Virus record (IMG/VR): IMGVR_UViG_3300001782_000005
Location: 186,001 to 250,000 of that record
DNA: 64,000 bases
Source of the DNA: a virus
Direction: 5' to 3' (one strand)
Shown here piece by piece: positions 26,171 through 40,622 of the stretch; the first letter of the stretch is position 1, and each line of letters starts with the position of its first letter. The position numbers were made by a program, and so were the translations under genes. The notes beneath the pieces were generated by a model that did not search any database, was not told the origin of the DNA, and saw only the letters and a program-made list of their open reading frames with translations.

Positions 26171-27097
26171 ATGTCCGAAAGACTTCAAAAAATACTCGAT
26201 GAATTAACAACTACGATGAATAGTACAATGTTCTGGGGTCCACATGGTTTTAGGCGTCAATCACAAGATGTAATAACTTATTATGACCCTAGAGCAGCTA
26301 CTGGATGGGAAGATTATGCAACTTATACTGCGATTGGACCTATTGTGCCCCCTACAACTGCAATTGGTAGTACAATACCAGTAGAAGGTTATGGTCTGAC
26401 AAATAAAAAAGTTGAAGAACAAGAAGAGGAAGAAAAGGAGCATGAAAAATTAGCAACTGAGCAACCCGTTCCTTTACAGCAGCCTCCTTCTGTTGGTGAG
26501 TTTGATGAAGATACTGAGGATAAAGAAAAGGAAGAAAAGATAAAAAAGGTTGATATATTACCAAGAAAGATAAGTGAACAACCCGAAGAAGAGGAAGAAC
26601 CTGTCGAAGAACCTGCGGGTGGTGAAGAAGATATACCAGGTATGCCGGGAGAAGAGATGCCAGGTGAAGAAGAAGGTATACCGGGTATGCCAGGTATACC
26701 AGGTATGCCAGGTGAGGAAGATACAGGACCTGAAACACCAGGAGAAGTTGGTCGTATTTATGAATTAAAGAAGATATATGCGAGATTAATTTCTCTTGAT
26801 CATCATCTGTCTTCATCTACTGATGAAGTTCTCCTAAAGTTACGTCATATAGTATCTCAATCAATTGAAGTCTTCCGAGTTATGATTGCAAATGTTGATT
26901 TGTTTAAGGATAAGATGAATAGTATAATTGTTCTATATTATGAATTTCTTGAGAGAGTATATACTCTACTAAAGAAATATTATAATGCAAAGACTAAAGA
27001 GGAGAGACGGGATGCCAAGATTGAGGATAAACCAGAGAGGGTTTCTCCTGAATACGGGCCACAGTCAAGTGAGAACCCCCTGTATAATAGAGCTTAA
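26171..27097 (+). CDS. Acidic protein with collagen-like segment
   Basis: A 308-aa protein. The N-terminus (MFWGPHGFRRQSQDV) precedes a long acidic stretch. Residues about 155-185 hold G-x-P-G repeats (GMPGIPGMPGEE) like a short collagen triple helix, then a helical C-terminal domain (about 195-285). It is between portal and protease-like genes, so it is likely a head or core component. Its end overlaps the next gene by 86 bp. AAGGAG precedes the start. Confidence 0.6.
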   Translation: MSERLQKILDELTTTMNSTMFWGPHGFRRQSQDVITYYDPRAATGWEDYATYTAIGPIVPPTTAIGSTIPVEGYGLTNKKVEEQEEEEKEHEKLATEQPVPLQQPPSVGEFDEDTEDKEKEEKIKKVDILPRKISEQPEEEEEPVEEPAGGEEDIPGMPGEEMPGEEEGIPGMPGIPGMPGEEDTGPETPGEVGRIYELKKIYARLISLDHHLSSSTDEVLLKLRHIVSQSIEVFRVMIANVDLFKDKMNSIIVLYYEFLERVYTLLKKYYNAKTKEERRDAKIEDKPERVSPEYGPQSSENPLYNRA

Positions 27098-28010
27098 TGA
27101 TTTTAACCGAGATTTAATTTTTAATCAATTGAGATCAGCAGGTATTTCAAATTATATTATTGATATTCCTGTGGTAATTCAAAGACCTGGCGAGAAAAAA
27201 AGAACACAGTCATTTCCATACTCTCTCAATTATAAACCAGACCCTCTTGACATGAGAGATTATAGAATTTCTAAACTTATTGATAAACCACTCTCTTATT
27301 CTCTATCCGTAGATCACACAAGTAAAATGTCTCCAGTAAAAGATCAAGGTCAAAAAGGTTCTTGCGTTGGTTTTGCAGTTGTTGCGATGAAAGAATGGCA
27401 AGAACAAAAAGAACATATTAATGAAATAATAAAGGGAAAGGTATATAGAAGGAAAGCTAAACACTACGATTTATCAGAGCAATGGTTATATCATAAGACA
27501 AAAGAAATTGATGCTTGGCCAAACCAAGAGGGTACAAGTTTTAGATATGCTCTTAAGATTCTTCAAAAAATGGGAGTTCCGCCTGAAAAAGCATGGCCAT
27601 ATAGTGATAGAACTTTAGGTAGTCCAAAAAGGTGGGCTAAAATGATTGCCCTTTGGACTATGTGTGGTCACTATTATAGACTAGAAGGCATAAAGCAGAT
27701 TGAATGGACATTGAGTAATATTGGACCATGTGTTGCTGGGATTGGTTGCTATGAAGAGATATTCTTCGTTGGTAATGATGGATATGTGCCATATCCAGCA
27801 AGATCAGATATCCTCTATGGTGGTCATGCCATATGTCTCGTTGGTTATGATTCTAAAAAGAAATTAGTTAAATTTAAGAATTCATGGGGAACAAATTGGG
27901 GAGAAAAGGGTTACGGTTATCTCTCTTATGATTATATCAATGATTTCTGTTGGGATGCTTGGGCGGTAAAAGATATTAATGTTACAAAGGAGATGCTTAA
28001 AAGCAAATAA
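27012..28010 (+). CDS. Papain-like (C1) cysteine protease in head module
   Basis: A 332-aa protein; ATG at 27012 after GAGGAGAG. Residues 1-50 are the VRTP domain shared with the protein at 23238. The peptidase part has VKDQGQKGSCVGFAVV (oxyanion Gln; nucleophile C118), YGGHAICLVGYD (H272) and FKNSWGTNWGEKGYGYL (N290): the full C1A triad. No signal peptide. C1 proteases are rare in phages. It may mature virion proteins, or act on the host at infection if packaged (inference). Confidence 0.85.
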   Translation: MPRLRINQRGFLLNTGHSQVRTPCIIELNDFNRDLIFNQLRSAGISNYIIDIPVVIQRPGEKKRTQSFPYSLNYKPDPLDMRDYRISKLIDKPLSYSLSVDHTSKMSPVKDQGQKGSCVGFAVVAMKEWQEQKEHINEIIKGKVYRRKAKHYDLSEQWLYHKTKEIDAWPNQEGTSFRYALKILQKMGVPPEKAWPYSDRTLGSPKRWAKMIALWTMCGHYYRLEGIKQIEWTLSNIGPCVAGIGCYEEIFFVGNDGYVPYPARSDILYGGHAICLVGYDSKKKLVKFKNSWGTNWGEKGYGYLSYDYINDFCWDAWAVKDINVTKEMLKSK

Positions 28011-32134: not shown

Positions 32135-33298
32135 TCACCTAGAATGTACGATACCCAATTTTTCTTCTTCATATGGAGCGGATATCGGTAGTCCTTCTAA
32201 CTCCCTCCACTTCCTCCAGAAGTCAAGAAGAAATATTTTGAGCATATAGCGAATACTCATATTCTTTATATGGTTATCGCTTATGATATTACTCAAGACA
32301 AACTTCTTTGCTTCTTTTAGAGTTGGTTGTTTTTTCTGTTTTGCCAACCATTTCTTACATAACTCATATTTCTCAGAGTTAATGGTCAGGGTTCCCTCAG
32401 AATCATGGGGGTCTTTTTTATAGAGGATTTGTTTTTGCCTTAGAGCTCTTATGAAGAACTCCCTTCTTCCCTGCATTCTAGTTCTGTAATCATAGAAAAT
32501 AGGTGAATAAATATTATCTTGCTTACGAAGGAAACTGGTTGCCAGGACATGGAGTTTTGTTTTTAGGTATGGGGAATATGTTATACTCTTCTTTGTTTTG
32601 GTTTTACCAGACTTATCTGTATATTCCCTATCGACTAAGTGGTGAGATTTCTTACTTCTACCTTCTCCTCTGACAACCTCTTCACCTTCGATCTCATCTA
32701 GAGTCCATACCACGTCAAGACCAGCATAACTCCAAAATGCGGTGACATGGTTTGCCCTATGAGGATCAAGTTCGCTCACAAGAACGCCGCCCATTGTAGG
32801 ACCAACTCCTTCAAGTCCTTTCAGGAATTCTGTCCAGATTGGAAACTCATCAAGAAATTTCTCAATTTGCTTATTGATCTTGTACTCCTGTTTGACAAGA
32901 GATATATAGGTGTCAACAAATATAAACATAATTTCACCAGAGATTATACCAGGGTGTGCATCCTTCATAATCTTAGGAATCTCTTTCATGTTTATCACAA
33001 CACCGTCAGTGATTCTCTTGTATTCTCTAGAGATAAGTCCCATTAACTCTTTTGGGAGACCATAAAGACCTTCTTTCTTTTCTCCCGGTTTTAGTCCAAA
33101 GCGACGATATAGATTACCAAGAATCCTATTTCCCATCCTGATCCTATCCCTCTGAATATCGTCATATCCTCTAATTAATCCTCTCAATTCAATCTTTGGA
33201 CTCCACAACTCAGGTACAGGTTGCACAGGTATGCTAAAACCTCTGCCCTTGAAAACATCTGCGATTGATTTTATAGGTTCTAAAACTTCCTTAGCCAT
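32135..33298 (-). CDS. Transposase_20 (IS110/IS116-type C-terminal domain) protein
   Basis: A 387-aa protein. Residues about 160-200, GLEGVGPTMGGVLVSELDP and AFWSYAGLDVVW, match the helix-hairpin-helix-like Transposase_20 domain of IS110 transposases. The basic SKKSHHLVDREYTDKSGKTK segment and a long helical tail follow. The N-terminal DEDD RuvC-like catalytic domain of IS110 is not evident. No inverted repeats or second ORF flank it. Its ribosome site (AAGGAG) directly abuts the first unit of the 36-bp-period array at 33312. A DNA-binding or RNA-guided role is possible but not shown. Confidence 0.7.
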   Translation of the reverse strand: MAKEVLEPIKSIADVFKGRGFSIPVQPVPELWSPKIELRGLIRGYDDIQRDRIRMGNRILGNLYRRFGLKPGEKKEGLYGLPKELMGLISREYKRITDGVVINMKEIPKIMKDAHPGIISGEIMFIFVDTYISLVKQEYKINKQIEKFLDEFPIWTEFLKGLEGVGPTMGGVLVSELDPHRANHVTAFWSYAGLDVVWTLDEIEGEEVVRGEGRSKKSHHLVDREYTDKSGKTKTKKSITYSPYLKTKLHVLATSFLRKQDNIYSPIFYDYRTRMQGRREFFIRALRQKQILYKKDPHDSEGTLTINSEKYELCKKWLAKQKKQPTLKEAKKFVLSNIISDNHIKNMSIRYMLKIFLLDFWRKWRELEGLPISAPYEEEKLGIVHSR

Positions 33299-33311
33299 AA
33301 CACTTCTCCTT

Positions 33312-34837
33312 GGTTCACTATATATATATGGGATTCTTTAATTCGATGGTTCACTCTACGTGCCGGTACGTCTCGATTCTTTGGAATCGGAAACACGCTT
33401 CTCTTGGTACACTACAATTTATTGATTTTTCTTATTCCTTGGTACACTTTTTCTTCTAGATTTTTTAAGAGATATAGGTTCACTCATGTTCGTTGGATAC
33501 TGCGGACTTCTGGTTCACTCCGGATGTTTGAATTTTATCAAATGATGGTTCACTGCCAACAAATGGTTTTTCCTTGCCAATACGGTTCACTTTTGAGTTC
33601 TGATTTTTTTGTGCTTGAAGGTCCACTTTATAGAAATGGGTTGCTGTAATTACATGGTTTACTAACACCCACAGGATTTCTCCCAATTCTAGGTTCACTT
33701 TTTTCTTCGGAATATTCTCCCCCACCTGGTTCACTTATCGTCTTAGGTTGTTTATCCATTCCGGGTTCACTCGGCAATTGGGTTTTTACTACGTAACTTG
33801 GTCCACTCCAACGCGCTGGGTTTCTGCGAGAGGACGGTTCACTCTTTTTTCAGGTTAATCTCCCCCACTTGGTTCACTCAAATTTTTGGGTTTCTGACAT
33901 TTTATGGTCCACTCCGTGTCGCTGGATTCCTCTGCTCCCTGTTGGTTCACTATTCAAAAATTGGTTTTTTTCCTTAGATTGGTTCACTCCGGCGCACTGG
34001 GTTTCTGTTGCTGGGTGGTTCACTTGGTGAATGTGAATTATTACAGGGGAATGGTCCACTTTATCATATTAGATTTTTTTCGTCGTTGGTTCACTTTGAA
34101 AAATGGGTTTGCATGACTTTTTGGGTTCACTCAGTCATCATGAATAACTGCCTTCAACTGGTTCACTGCAGCTCCCAGGTTTTCTCCGGGCTTATTGGTT
34201 CACTGGACTATAATGGTTTAGCTGTAGACTTTGGTTCACTTTCATGTACGGGATTTTCTAGCCAACGTAGGTACACTCCTTGCATCGGTTACCTGATATG
34301 CTATGGTTCACTTAACAATGATGATTTTTTGTGTCTTTATCTGGTTCACTTTCCAACGATGGGTTACTTCGCCAAAACGGTCCACTCAAAAATCCTGGTC
34401 TTCTGGCCTCGCTTGGTTCACACTAATTTCGGATTGGTACACTCTAAGGTGCCCTGCACCGACTGGTTTTTTACACTTTCCTTGAATGGTTTTCTCGCCC
34501 AGACCGGTTCATTCCCGTTTTCTGGTTATTATCCTCACTTCTGATTCACTCGCCACGTCTGAGTTTTTTGATCACTACTGGTTCACTTTCGTCATTTGAT
34601 TTCTGCTCAATTTTGGTTCACTTAAGATTCTTAGATACTTCTTTATCTTGGTTCACTAGACTGATTGGATTAATTGTACCACAGGTTCACTCGGCGGGTA
34701 TGAATTTTTCTGGATGCATGGTTCACTCATTCTGTTTAGATACTGATAAAGTTAGGTTCACTGAGGTTAGGAGGGTTCCTATTTCTCTCCTTTGGTTCAC
34801 TCTCTCGCTCAGGTAATCTGTTTCACGATGGTTCACT
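33312..34837 (+). repeat. Array of ~42 GGTTCACT units, 36-bp period
   Basis: About 1.5 kb without a believable gene. GGTTCACT (or GGTCCACT, GGTACACT) recurs at 33312, 33348, 33406, 33441, 33477, 33512, 33547, 33584, 33620 and so on to 34830. Spacing is 34-39 bp, mostly 35-37; exceptions are 58 at the left, one short 21-bp step (34415-34436) and one missing unit near 34471. A weaker second motif, TGGRTTT or TGATTTT, sits about 17-18 bp into most units. Other positions differ between units and are pyrimidine-rich on the plus strand. Frames shift between units, so it is not coding. Confidence 0.9.
33317..33331. promoter_or_regulatory. ATATATATAT motif in first array unit, copy g
   Basis: ACTATATATATATGGG lies within the first array unit, 19 bp before the start of the Transposase_20 gene. 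It resembles the recurrent phage motif and could drive that gene on the minus strand or the array on the plus strand. Confidence 0.45.
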
Positions 34838-34854
34838 TTGCAGAATAAATTACT

Positions 34855-34887
34855 AAAAAAAAGTACTCATAACGAGTACCTTTTTTT
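34855..34887. terminator. Bidirectional terminator after the array
   Basis: Eight A, GTACTC-ATAAC-GAGTAC, C and seven T. It closes the array in plus direction and also the tRNA-like gene on the minus strand. Confidence 0.85.
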
Positions 34888-34896
34888 CTAAAGGGT

Positions 34897-35038
34897 GGTA
34901 GGGGGTGGGAATCGAACCCAAAGACGGTATTGGCAGTTGAAAGGAGGAAAGACCGCCAACTTTGGAAAAGAGTCCTCCCGACCGTCTTGGATGGTGGTAG
35001 AACAACCATCCAGCATTCCGGTTGCCATTCCCCCTACC
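34897..35038 (-). ncRNA. 142-nt tRNA-like RNA
   Basis: Read on the minus strand: a 9-bp acceptor-like stem GGTAGGGGG/CCCCCTACC, a T-arm TGGG-TTCGATT-CCCA with canonical T-loop, a GGCA/TGCT D-like arm, an 8-bp hairpin TGGATGGT/ACCATCCA, and an insert closed by AAGACGGT/ACCGTCTT (8 bp) holding GGAGGA/TCCTCC and a possible GTTGGC/GCCAAT pairing. 9+4 acceptor/T-arm pairing recalls tRNA-Sec, but the length, the missing normal anticodon loop (GTTCTAC at best, TCT) and the absence of encoded CCA do not. No tmRNA tag frame is seen. It may be a tRNA mimic or an intron-bearing tRNA. Confidence 0.6.
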
Positions 35039-35076
35039 ATTAGAGTTTCCTGTGTATCTCTCATATGCGCCTCTCT

Positions 35077-36778: not shown

Positions 36779-36813
36779 GGGGTGATGCTAAAAGGGCGTC
36801 ACCCCAATTTTTT
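36779..36813. terminator. Intrinsic terminator
   Basis: GGGGTGA..GC and GCG..TCACCCC hairpin followed by AATTTTTT. It ends the plus gene at 36718 and overlaps the stop of the minus gene at 36799. Confidence 0.8.
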
Positions 36814-37374
36814 CGTTATCACGTTGTTAGCTTTAGTATGTTTTAATTTCTTATGACTCTCAATGGCAGAGTCTATACATGCCTCTTTTGTTTCCTTATC
36901 TATAAGTTCAAGAACCTCTGTTTCCTTCAATATGAGTTCATCCGAATTAGAAGCTGTATTTACAGAATAAACCATTGAGAGGTTCTGAATCGTTATATAC
37001 CTTGCTACCTCAGGATCTTGTTCTACTTCCCTGCAATAAATGTATGCCCAGTAAGAGTCCGTTATATACTTTCTTACCTCTGGGCGATTTTCGATCTCTT
37101 TACAATAATAGTATGCATCCTCTGGTTCGGTTATATATTTTCGTATGGTTGGATAATCCACACAGAACCTACAATAGAAATAGGCATATTCGGAGGCAGT
37201 TATTCGACGCCTGATTCTAATATCATCTTTAACCCACCTACAGTATTCATATGCCCACTTTGGAGATGTAATTAAATTAGCGACTTCAAATAGGTTCTTT
37301 ACATCTCTGCAATATTCATATGCCCACTTAGAAATCTGTTCTTCTTCTAACCAAAGGTTCATAATGTCGTCCAT
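36799..37374 (-). CDS. Protein with five 23-residue WAYxYCR repeats
   Basis: A 191-aa protein. Residues about 14-130 are tandem 23-aa repeats with consensus WAYEYCR-x-V-(5)-R-(2)-I-T: WAYEYCRDV, WAYEYCRWV, YAYFYCRFC, DAYYYCKEI and WAYIYCREV, each followed by a helix ending in I or YIT. They look like paired helices of a solenoid. The C-terminal 60 residues are helical and charged. No family name recognised; likely a protein-binding scaffold. Confidence 0.65.
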   Translation of the reverse strand: MDDIMNLWLEEEQISKWAYEYCRDVKNLFEVANLITSPKWAYEYCRWVKDDIRIRRRITASEYAYFYCRFCVDYPTIRKYITEPEDAYYYCKEIENRPEVRKYITDSYWAYIYCREVEQDPEVARYITIQNLSMVYSVNTASNSDELILKETEVLELIDKETKEACIDSAIESHKKLKHTKANNVITKKLG

Positions 37375-37448: not shown

Positions 37449-38231
37449 TTACTCCGCTAAAGGCTTCAGAGCAAACATTTGAATCCAGGGTTTACTCCTA
37501 TATCCAGCCTCACCGCCGGAGAATCCGAAACCACCGGAACCAACACCACCACTGTTCTGATTGTTTTTGGCAGTCTCAATCCATGCCTGAGTGTAGCTAA
37601 AACCAACGCCCCACCCGAAGGCCTTGATTACACGAGAATAACCTTCTGCAGTCAGAAACAACGTTTTGGCTCCCATGTCTAGAGCGGAAAGAGCAGCAGC
37701 CGCCAATACCTCCATTGAGGTTGAGTCTACATTCTTGCTTGATACATAAATAAGACCAACCTGCTGAACGGGGTATGAAGGTCGCTTAATTATAATCTCA
37801 ATGGTATCCTCAGCAGCTTTCTCGTCCTTCTTCTTTATAGGAACTAAGGATTTCGCATTGATCTTGATCCTACCGCCTGCCATGGCCTCCAGTTCAGCAC
37901 GAGTCCACACCTTCTTGAAGAGCAACATAACGCCTGCTTTCTGGAAGTTGTAGTCCTCTGTGGGCTGACCGAAGTACTGTGGATATCCGGGGTAATTAAC
38001 ATCGCCCGGTACCGGGAAGCTTCTGGGAATCTCCGAACCATACGTAGTGATGGTTGCACTAGGACTCCCACCTATCTGAAGTTGCGACTGCTCATTGTTG
38101 CTAAGGTTCTGGTTATCAACTTCATTAGCGTTGGAGTTGTCACCATTTGCAATAGCATCAGCGAAAACAGCAGGCGCACTCAGCACCAAGCAGGAAAGTA
38201 GTGCGACCAGAATGAATAGCTTACGCCTCAT
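37449..38231 (-). CDS. Exported protein (260 aa)
   Basis: Start at 38231 after AAAGGAGG. Signal peptide MRRKLFILVALLSCLVLSAPAVFA, cut before DAIANG. The mature part has a polar N-terminus, KVWTRAELEAMAG and the long conserved-looking helix EVLAAAALSALDMGAKTL, and a Gly-rich stretch (GGVGSGGFGFSGGEAG). Family unknown. It is the last gene of a higher-GC operon of exported proteins (37.4-40.6 kb). Confidence 0.7.
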   Translation of the reverse strand: MRRKLFILVALLSCLVLSAPAVFADAIANGDNSNANEVDNQNLSNNEQSQLQIGGSPSATITTYGSEIPRSFPVPGDVNYPGYPQYFGQPTEDYNFQKAGVMLLFKKVWTRAELEAMAGGRIKINAKSLVPIKKKDEKAAEDTIEIIIKRPSYPVQQVGLIYVSSKNVDSTSMEVLAAAALSALDMGAKTLFLTAEGYSRVIKAFGWGVGFSYTQAWIETAKNNQNSGGVGSGGFGFSGGEAGYRSKPWIQMFALKPLAE

Positions 38232-38253
38232 AGGGTCTTTCCTCCTTTCCTGC

Positions 38254-39120
38254 TTAGAGACCGCCGAGTCCCTCATTATAGGTGATGGACCCGTCCAATA
38301 CCGGGACCGATCCTGCGCTGTTGATGGTGAGTTTGGTATATGACTGAGATGCCTGTTGCTGGACTCCAGAAGCTCCAACAAGGACACCTTCGCCATCAAA
38401 CACTGGCCGCTGTACCTGCTCTTGTATGAACACATTGTTCGCTTCAAGATCAAGATCAGCATCACCAACCATGCTTACTGCAGCGCCGACACATGACTCA
38501 TGACCACCACTCTGCTGCATGGCCAAGAGAACAACATTTTCCATCAACAGTTCGCCAGCTATTCCATAAGTTGGCATCCAGTCAATGTCAATGTCTATGT
38601 CAGTGTCAGAATCGAAGTCAGCCTCGACCTCGGTTTCTGATTCTGCTTCTGCTTCAGAATCGGACATAGCAAGGGCACCAGCGCCAGCAACGGCTCCTGA
38701 ACCGCTCAGGGCACCAGCACCAGCTATTTCAATAGCTTCGCCCTCTCCGCTAGTATTTGCATTAGCGGTTGCATCACTGTCTCCAGTAGCGTTTGCATTT
38801 GCATCCGCATCCGAATCAGAAGTTGCGGTAGAGTCTGCAGTGGCATCGCTGCTAGCACTGTAACTCTCGTCGATGTTGATGTCTACAATCAACTGATCAT
38901 TGAACACAGGATTCCAGCTGAGACTGAGACTCTCAATTGAGAGATCAATCATGGACTGTTCGGCACAACAGGTTTCATGGTTGTTCCAAACAATACCATC
39001 AACTCCACTGGGTTGACCAATTGTCAGAGATGCATCGAGATCCTTGGGCGGATCAGCGAGAGACGGTACCGCAAAGGAGACCAGTGCAACAGCCAACAGT
39101 ATAGCTAAGACTTTCTTCAT
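38254..39120 (-). CDS. Exported Ala/Ser/Asp-rich protein (288 aa)
   Basis: Signal peptide MKKVLAILLAVALVSFAVPSLA. The middle (about 85-180) is low-complexity Ala-Ser-Asp-Thr, with runs such as SDSDADANANATGDSDATAN; then DTDIDIDIDW. A two-Cys motif (HETCCAEQ) is near residue 50. It looks like an extracellular fibre or adhesin-like protein. AGGAGG-like site upstream. Confidence 0.7.
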   Translation of the reverse strand: MKKVLAILLAVALVSFAVPSLADPPKDLDASLTIGQPSGVDGIVWNNHETCCAEQSMIDLSIESLSLSWNPVFNDQLIVDINIDESYSASSDATADSTATSDSDADANANATGDSDATANANTSGEGEAIEIAGAGALSGSGAVAGAGALAMSDSEAEAESETEVEADFDSDTDIDIDIDWMPTYGIAGELLMENVVLLAMQQSGGHESCVGAAVSMVGDADLDLEANNVFIQEQVQRPVFDGEGVLVGASGVQQQASQSYTKLTINSAGSVPVLDGSITYNEGLGGL

Positions 39121-39150
39121 GTCTTTTGCCTCCTTAATGTTTATGTAGGG

Positions 39151-39603
39151 TTAGTTAGTTGACGTTGATACAACTGAACTGGTGGATGTTTGTGTACTAG
39201 TTCCCGTTTGAACTCCGATATATCCGTTAGCTGCAAGACCAACTTGATTCTGCACATTGGTCTGATAAGCGTTAGCACCACCGGATGTAAACACACGAGT
39301 CTTATCTGTACAGTTGAGATCAGTTGTTGATTGGATTACCTGAATGACTTCCTGATCGGAAATCTGACTCATTTCTGCATCAGCGGGCATGGCCCAATAC
39401 TTAGCATCATAATCCAAACCGACATCTTCAGCTGTTACCGTAAGACCCTGAGCACGATTTTCAAGACGTGTGCTCTGATCGTACTCTTGATATATGACCT
39501 GCTTAGCATCCGTATTGGCATTGGTGGCACCATCGTCCGCATAGACGGAACTAGTGAGTACGAAGACCAACACGAGAACTAGAAAGACTATTGTCTTCCT
39601 CAT
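39151..39603 (-). CDS. Exported protein (150 aa)
   Basis: Signal peptide MRKTIVFLVLVLVFVLTSSVYA. The mature part is Asn/Thr/Gln-rich (GATNANTDAKQVIYQEYDQS) and ends in a Thr/Ser tail (TSTQTSTSSVVSTSTN). Composition recalls secreted amyloid- or fibre-forming proteins but no repeat is seen. Function unknown. Confidence 0.65.
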   Translation of the reverse strand: MRKTIVFLVLVLVFVLTSSVYADDGATNANTDAKQVIYQEYDQSTRLENRAQGLTVTAEDVGLDYDAKYWAMPADAEMSQISDQEVIQVIQSTTDLNCTDKTRVFTSGGANAYQTNVQNQVGLAANGYIGVQTGTSTQTSTSSVVSTSTN

Positions 39604-39635
39604 GTGGTCACTCCTTTCTCAGTGATCGGAGGTTC

Positions 39636-40622
39636 TTATCGAGGGACGTTACATTCTAACACACCAGCTGCAGTGAAACTGCTAACTGACCCTGCTTGGT
39701 AACCGCCTTGAACCTGGCCAGCCACAACACCGTCTCCAGCCCAACTAAGGGTGGTACCACGGTGAGTTTCGAAAGAGCAGTTTTCAGCATAGGATCCGCT
39801 CATGGCCAAGGTTTCTGACTTAGTCTTGGTCTCATCCTTGGTCTCGGTCACACTCTTGTCCCAGCTCTCTGACTTATCTTTGGTCTCAGTTACACTTTTA
39901 TCCCAAGATTCAGATGAGCTACCGGAACCTGAGAGATCGCCGGAGAAGGTGTGAGTATCTGTCTCGGTGACTGACTCTGACTTATTATAGTCACAGTCAG
40001 GGCAGTCAGAGTCTTCCTGAGTGTCGTTGTCAGTGAATGTCCCAGTTGAGGTTTCTGTCACAGTTTCCTCATCCGTACACTCTGCATTCGCAGCGATTTC
40101 AAATGAACCCTCACTGGAGGAGTCCTCATCGACTACTTTGGTCTCAGTCTTTGACTCGACGTAATCTTCATCGACAACCTTGGTCTTTTCCTTGGACTCG
40201 GTCTTCGTTTCATCATACTGCTTGTCGAACGACCAAGTACCATCTTTGGAACTTTCCATGGTGAAGTATTTGTCAATGTTGATTGAACCCTCACCCAAAG
40301 TGGCAAGTTGACCTTGACCATCAAACTGCATGGCCTCACCCTGAGCGCTCTGCATGGTGAAACCACCCACAACAGCATCTTCACAGTCTTCACAGTCGAT
40401 GGTTGCGGAGGTATCAGCCTCAAGCAGCATCTCTTTCTTGGATGATTGGAGCATTTCTCCACCGATAGTATCTCCACCCTCATTCTGAATGGCCTGGGCA
40501 CCCTGGAATTGCTCATCAGTCATGCCCTGGTAGAGTTCGGCCGAACCACTGATATCTGCCAGCGCCGGGCCGGCAAAAATCAGCAGAACGATGGAAAGTA
40601 ATACAATAACTTTCGTCTTCAT
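39636..40622 (-). CDS. Exported repeat-containing protein (328 aa)
   Basis: Signal peptide MKTKVIVLLSIVLLIFAGPALA. A Lys/Glu/Thr/Ser-rich centre holds imperfect repeats: KVVDEDYVESKTETK and KVVDEDSSSEGS; SWDKSVTETKDKSE twice in a row. CxxC pairs (CEDCED, CPDCDY) may be disulphides. First gene of the exported operon; likely surface or extracellular. Function unknown. Confidence 0.7.
   Translation of the reverse strand: MKTKVIVLLSIVLLIFAGPALADISGSAELYQGMTDEQFQGAQAIQNEGGDTIGGEMLQSSKKEMLLEADTSATIDCEDCEDAVVGGFTMQSAQGEAMQFDGQGQLATLGEGSINIDKYFTMESSKDGTWSFDKQYDETKTESKEKTKVVDEDYVESKTETKVVDEDSSSEGSFEIAANAECTDEETVTETSTGTFTDNDTQEDSDCPDCDYNKSESVTETDTHTFSGDLSGSGSSSESWDKSVTETKDKSESWDKSVTETKDETKTKSETLAMSGSYAENCSFETHRGTTLSWAGDGVVAGQVQGGYQAGSVSSFTAAGVLECNVPR

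What the first reader, a model, noticed from the sequence alone, without database searches (positions are those of the whole stretch)
33312..34837. A 1.5-kb array of ~42 short-motif units with a 36-bp period beside a Transposase_20 gene
GGTTCACT (with GGTCCACT and GGTACACT variants) recurs about 42 times, mostly every 35-37 bp, with a second TGGRTTT-like motif about half-way in each unit and otherwise variable sequence. The array is non-coding and starts at the ribosome site of an IS110-type Transposase_20 protein. It has a TATATATATAT motif at its left end and a strong terminator at its right end. It is too degenerate for a CRISPR array. It could be an RNA array used by the neighbouring protein (IS110 enzymes use a structured guide RNA), a centromere or iteron-like binding array, or a packaging or replication site. 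Spacer variability with a conserved short motif is the intriguing part.
Basis: partly seen in the sequence, partly recalled or inferred. Interest (0 to 1): 0.92.

Follow-up and report, generated by a model that had tools for sequence, protein, structure and literature searches.

The report
Phage TIGR guide-RNA array with TasA
A large bacterial virus carries two long arrays of paired 9-base guide sequences and one small RNA-binding protein; this is a TIGR-Tas system (an RNA-guided DNA-targeting kind first described in 2025), and comparison with related viruses shows that the guides are kept by selection although what they aim at is still unknown.

Summary
The array is real, and it is a TIGR array (Tandem Interspaced Guide RNA): 42 edge repeats (AGTGAACCA on the minus strand) alternate with A-rich loop repeats (AGAAAYCCA), separated by 9-nt spacers, with a 36-nt period. 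The neighbouring protein is not an IS110 transposase. It is a nuclease-less TasA: it has a Nop-type fold, its best solved relatives are TasR, TasH and then IS621, and it lacks an N-terminal nuclease. The RNA strand is the tas strand, so the array is the 5' leader of tas, and its last edge repeat touches the ribosome-binding site. The 277-kb phage record holds one tas gene and a second, orphan array 144 kb away; that orphan locus is syntenic in three related phages. 95 fetched loci carry arrays with this edge; 56 have an adjacent tas, always on the same strand. Units are inherited whole. In retained units the spacers (85-94% identical) exceed loops (71%) and third codon positions (63%), which indicates selection on guide sequence. 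No target was found in the phage, held relatives, rRNA or searched collections. Targets, the DNA-binding step and function are therefore inferred. Verdict: a new member of a known kind, with notable features.

The parts
32135..33298 (-). tas gene, 387 aa TasA-type Nop protein (no nuclease domain; extra ~36-aa N-terminus and two inserts)
33312..34837 (-). TIGR array W: 42 edge repeats AGTGAACC(A), 41 units, loop AGAAAYCCA, 9-nt spacers A and B
33306..33319 (-). last edge repeat (33312-33319) directly joined to the Shine-Dalgarno AAGGAG (33306-33311) of tas (ATG at 33298)
   Evidence: sequence; same layout in L012 and L205
33348..33405 (-). extended unit: loop repeat replaced by a hairpin (CGATTC-CAAA-GAATCG); in relative L012 the stem changes to CAATTC-TTCG-GAGTTG
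34415..34505 (-). second non-canonical, hairpin-bearing stretch (GGTGC-AGG-GCACC), the best conserved part of the array between the two phages
34855..34887 (-). bidirectional terminator-like hairpin just upstream of the array RNA

Best explanation
This is a phage TIGR-TasA system. The minus-strand transcript of 33312-34837 is the precursor of about 41 tigRNAs. A dimer of the 387-aa Nop protein would bind each 36-nt tigRNA through its edge and loop repeats (box D 'AG', box C 'CCA'). Spacer A would pair with one DNA strand and spacer B with the other, placing the protein on an 18-20 bp target. With no nuclease, the RNP would bind and bend or unwind DNA rather than cut it, most likely to block genes or replication of a non-self target (host genes or competing elements). 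One TasA would serve two arrays, array W in its own 5' leader and the orphan array X 144 kb away. Because the last edge repeat abuts the tas Shine-Dalgarno, TasA binding or array processing there would couple TasA synthesis to guide supply. Shown here: array anatomy, strand, protein family and fold, absence of a nuclease domain, association across phages, orphan-array synteny, and constraint on spacers. Inferred: transcription, processing, DNA binding, what is targeted, and the autoregulation. The confidence given is for the identification as TIGR-TasA; the non-self silencing role alone is about 0.5.
For: Protein: phmmer and profile hits to TasR 9mty (3e-13; 7e-40 with the family profile) and TasH 21kl (1e-5; 2e-54), then IS621 and ISCro4. 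The AlphaFold model (pLDDT 79) matches TasR and TasH first, then IS621, then box C/D Nop5. The alignment of 25 Tas proteins shows no N-terminal nuclease in this one. Array: 9-9-9-9 edge-A-loop-B layout, as defined for TIGR. On the minus strand both repeats read AG...CCA, as in the characterised Salicola phage TIGR array (AGCGAGCCA/AGACAACCA). Association: 56 of 95 loci with this edge have tas, 56/56 on the AGTGAACC strand. Trans use: one tas and two arrays in the record; the X locus is syntenic in L057, L086 and L059. Selection: retained orthologous units have spacer identity of 94% (A) and 85% (B), against 71% in loops and 63.5% at third positions of tas. When pairs are chosen on an identical spacer A alone, spacer B matches in 41/41 pairs with 0-3 mismatches. 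Mismatches avoid the spacer centre (2 of 17 at positions 4-7, P=0.005), where the published seed lies. Non-self: no 18-bp target in the own genome (95 kb with gaps allowed).
Against: No target was found anywhere searched, so DNA targeting by these guides rests on homology. No transcript data exist. Loop repeats are ragged here (8-10 nt) compared with the crisp relative in L040, so some units may be inactive. The spacer-conservation figures for W versus V come partly from units recognised by spacer similarity; reduces that bias but does not remove it.
Confidence: 0.93

Rival explanations
1. An IS110-family transposon with a bridge RNA; the array is decayed bridge-RNA or transposon debris.
For: Pfam Transposase_20 hit; IS621 and ISCro4 appear as more distant sequence and fold matches.
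Against: No DEDD/RuvC N-terminal domain in the protein; TasR and TasH match far better; a bridge RNA is a single two-loop RNA, not 41 units; the locus keeps the same position in diverged phages.
Confidence: 0.02
2. A TIGR array that is decaying and no longer functional in this lineage.
For: Loop length varies from 8 to 10 nt and some edges are mutated, whereas the L040 array is crisp.
Against: Spacers are more conserved than loops and third codon positions, edges are nearly invariant, and tas is 83% identical with an intact frame.
Confidence: 0.07
3. A DNA-level site array (iteron, centromere or packaging site) bound by the protein as DNA.
For: Regular spacing, an adjacent binding protein, and a second array elsewhere in the genome; parB-like neighbours of some TasA genes are reported.
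Against: Variable 9-nt spacers are individually conserved between phages, which a fixed-motif DNA site would not need; edges and loops match RNA repeats of characterised TIGR systems; the strand is fixed relative to tas in 56/56 loci.
Confidence: 0.02
4. A TIGR-TasA system whose guides act on the phage's own genome (gene regulation, genome organisation or bending).
For: The protein lacks a nuclease, so self-binding would not be lethal; two arrays are long-term residents of the genome.
Against: No guide has a full match in the 277-kb record, and in 95 kb with gaps of 0-2 matches do not exceed shuffled spacer pairs.
Confidence: 0.08

Closest known systems
TIGR-TasA dual-repeat systems (Faure et al. 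2025, PMC12045711)
   Same: Solo Nop-domain protein, alternating edge and loop repeats, 9-nt spacers, ~36-nt units, box C/D-like motifs shared by both repeats, located in phages, tas-linked arrays
   Different: About 41 plus 27 units instead of the usual 5-15; a second orphan array 144 kb away; array upstream of tas with its last edge joined to the ribosome site; hairpin-extended units inside a dual-repeat array; N-terminal extension and inserts in TasA
SpTIGR-TasH of Salicola phage CGphi29
   Same: Nearly the same repeat logic (AGCGAGCCA / AGACAACCA versus AGTGAACCA / AGAAAYCCA) and the same strand relation to tas
   Different: TasH carries an HNH nuclease; the array is short, lies downstream of tas and ends in a terminator
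IS110/IS621 transposase with bridge RNA
   Same: Related Nop-like RNA-binding domain
   Different: No DEDD nuclease/recombinase domain here, and an array instead of a single bridge RNA
Stem-loop TIGR arrays
   Same: Two units here carry a hairpin in place of a simple repeat
   Different: The rest of the array is dual-repeat

Membership tests
TIGR-Tas | Nop-domain protein of the Tas family next to the array | tested here: met
TIGR-Tas | Two alternating 8-12-nt repeats separated by ~9-nt spacers | tested here: met
[quoted passage not shown]
TIGR-Tas | Array followed by a truncated edge and a rho-independent terminator (reported as typical, so not a strictly defining feature) | tested here: not met
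   Array W runs into the tas ribosome site instead; relative array Y (L040) does end in a terminator
TIGR-Tas | Transcript processed to 36-nt tigRNAs bound by Tas | not testable with these tools
   needs RNA sequencing
TIGR-Tas | Guides bind a DNA target by A on one strand and B on the other | tested here: inconclusive
   no targets found; constraint on spacers fits guide use
TasA (subtype) | No nuclease domain fused to the Nop domain | tested here: met
IS110 transposase | N-terminal DEDD RuvC-like domain | tested here: not met
CRISPR array | One repeat type of about 25-36 nt with similar-sized spacers | tested here: not met

The most novel reading that the evidence does not exclude
A two-array, one-effector phage TIGR-TasA system in which a nuclease-less TasA works in trans on an orphan array conserved across jumbo-type phages, is autoregulated through the terminal edge repeat fused to its own ribosome site, and silences a fixed set of non-self DNA targets. 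The guides are inherited as whole dual-spacer units under purifying selection and are replaced unit by unit.
Probability: 0.4. Interest if true: 0.75.

Novelty: new member of a known kind. Interest (0 to 1): 0.55.

Why it matters
The natural targets of TIGR systems, the origin of their spacers and the job of nuclease-less TasA are stated open questions in the founding paper. This phage group gives material to answer them. It offers several related phages whose arrays share some units and have replaced others, a measured constraint on spacers, whole-unit inheritance, an orphan array that should work in trans, and a possible feedback link between array and tas translation.

Tried and rejected
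Self-targets: none beyond shuffled spacer pairs. rRNA: no enrichment. Cross-phage targets in all held loci: one AT-rich match only. IMG/VR scan for the W12/V13 target: 10 hits, reducing to 7 independent ones in unrelated genes, as expected by chance. IMG/VR scan for the guide that is identical in four phages: 0 hits; 393 Spirochaetota genomes: 0. The idea that spacer changes follow codon third positions of a coding target was attractive and was rejected: under the A / reverse-complement-B geometry the two halves would need opposite strands, and in-frame stops are not depleted. A residual excess of changes at spacer positions 3, 6 and 9 (60 of 128, P=0.001, found after the fact, with groups that may include chance pairs) is left unexplained. 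AlphaFold with two sequences failed. Tas scan of GTDB with the two-sequence alignment found nothing. Plasmids: none. Tas in the fragments carrying L057, L086, L059 and L040: none found, but those records are partial.

Full report
Observation. The array is real: 42 edge-like 8-mers in 1.5 kb against about 1.3 in shuffled sequence, 34 of 41 spacings of 35-37 bp, and no such pairs anywhere else in the 277-kb virus record except a second cluster at C1:75526-76508. Unit alignment shows four blocks of about 9 nt: invariant edge, variable spacer, semi-conserved loop, variable spacer. That is the definition of a TIGR dual-repeat array (PMC12045711).

Strand. On the minus strand both repeats start AG and end CCA (AGTGAACCA, AGAAAYCCA), as in the characterised TIGR array of Salicola phage CGphi29 (AGCGAGCCA, AGACAACCA). 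In all 56 loci where a Tas ORF lies beside an array with this edge, tas is on the AGTGAACC strand; some of these loci are redundant. In the extended unit 33348-33405 the minus-strand stem CGATTC/GAATCG becomes CAATTC/GAGTTG with a UUCG loop in L012, which pairs with one G-U on the minus strand but would have a mismatch on the plus strand (sequences; inference). The array of the relative L040 ends, in that direction, at a terminator.

Protein. Pfam gives only a weak Transposase_20 match. Against solved structures the sequence hits TasR and TasH. The family profile built from 25 Tas proteins found beside such arrays hits TasH at 2e-54, TasR at 7e-40, and IS621 at 1e-8. The AlphaFold model (pLDDT 79, pTM 0.74) matches TasR and TasH, then IS621, then box C/D Nop5. 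Its N-terminus is a ~36-residue extension followed at once by the coiled-coil, so there is no nuclease: it is a TasA.

Context. In array W the last edge repeat touches AAGGAG, the ribosome site of tas. The same fusion occurs in L012 before tas and before a 91-aa gene lodged inside the array, in array X before a 164-aa gene, and in a Spirochaetales contig (L205) before its own tas. This suggests coupled control, an inference. The record holds a single tas. The orphan array X is flanked by the same genes in L057, L086 and L059 at about 46-77% amino-acid identity. The records are linear fragments, so a missing second tas cannot be excluded.

Evolution. Two IMG/VR records carry the identical array. 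L012, with tas 83% identical in protein, has about 57 units. Nine units of W and X have a partner in L012 within 3 mismatches of 18, none has 4-5, and the rest look like chance. Spacers of retained units are 94% (A) and 85% (B) identical, loops 71%, third codon positions of tas 63.5%. Chosen on an identical spacer A alone across six arrays, spacer B matches within 0-3 mismatches in 41 of 41 pairs. Some guides are identical in four arrays while their loops differ. So units are inherited and lost whole, and guide letters are under constraint. Changes avoid the spacer centre, as expected if pairing matters.

Targets. None were found: own genome, relatives, rRNA, viral collection for two guides, Spirochaetota genomes for one. 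These tests are limited. Only exact or near-exact sites were sought, the whole-genome self search needs contiguous matches, and the host is unknown.

Novelty. TIGR-Tas in phages is published. New here are this family's size in IMG/VR (95 array loci, most of them viral, from a truncated scan), the long double array with one TasA, the edge-ribosome-site fusion, hairpin units inside a dual-repeat array, and a comparative measure of guide constraint. The founding paper does not mention an orphan array, jumbo phages or a Shine-Dalgarno link (word search only).

Noticed in passing
window 34895-35043 (-): tRNA-like element with acceptor and T arms and a very long variable region (MFE -61.5, z -3.8; weak Rfam tRNA-Sec score), not called by ARAGORN; a similar sequence lies at the same place in L012.
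   Followed up: partly
window 26985-28010 (+): Papain-family (Peptidase_C1) cysteine protease gene between the portal-side genes and the head maturation protease.
   Followed up: partly
window 37449-40622 (-): Run of ORFs with signal-peptide-like starts and long Asp/Ser/Thr-rich low-complexity stretches, unusual for a phage.
   Followed up: no
window 36799-37374 (-): 191-aa protein built of ~27-residue repeats with a WAYxYCR motif; conserved in L012.
   Followed up: no
L040 10101-10688 and L012 4390-4665: Small genes (195 aa, 91 aa) lodged inside TIGR arrays, joined tightly to edge repeats; no confident family.
   Followed up: partly
L184, L205, L214, L219, L223: Arrays with the same edge repeat in GTDB contigs labelled Thermoanaerobaculia, Spirochaetales (two), Yanofskybacteria and Lachnospiraceae; whether phage or host DNA was not determined.
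   Followed up: partly
window 33692-33727 and 33836-33870: Two units of array W share similar spacers (TCCCCCAC and T-rich), perhaps an old duplication within the array.
   Followed up: no
all lineages, spacer positions 3, 6, 9: Substitutions between orthologous units are in excess at every third spacer position in both spacers (60 of 128, P=0.001, post hoc); codon origin excluded, cause unknown.
   Followed up: partly
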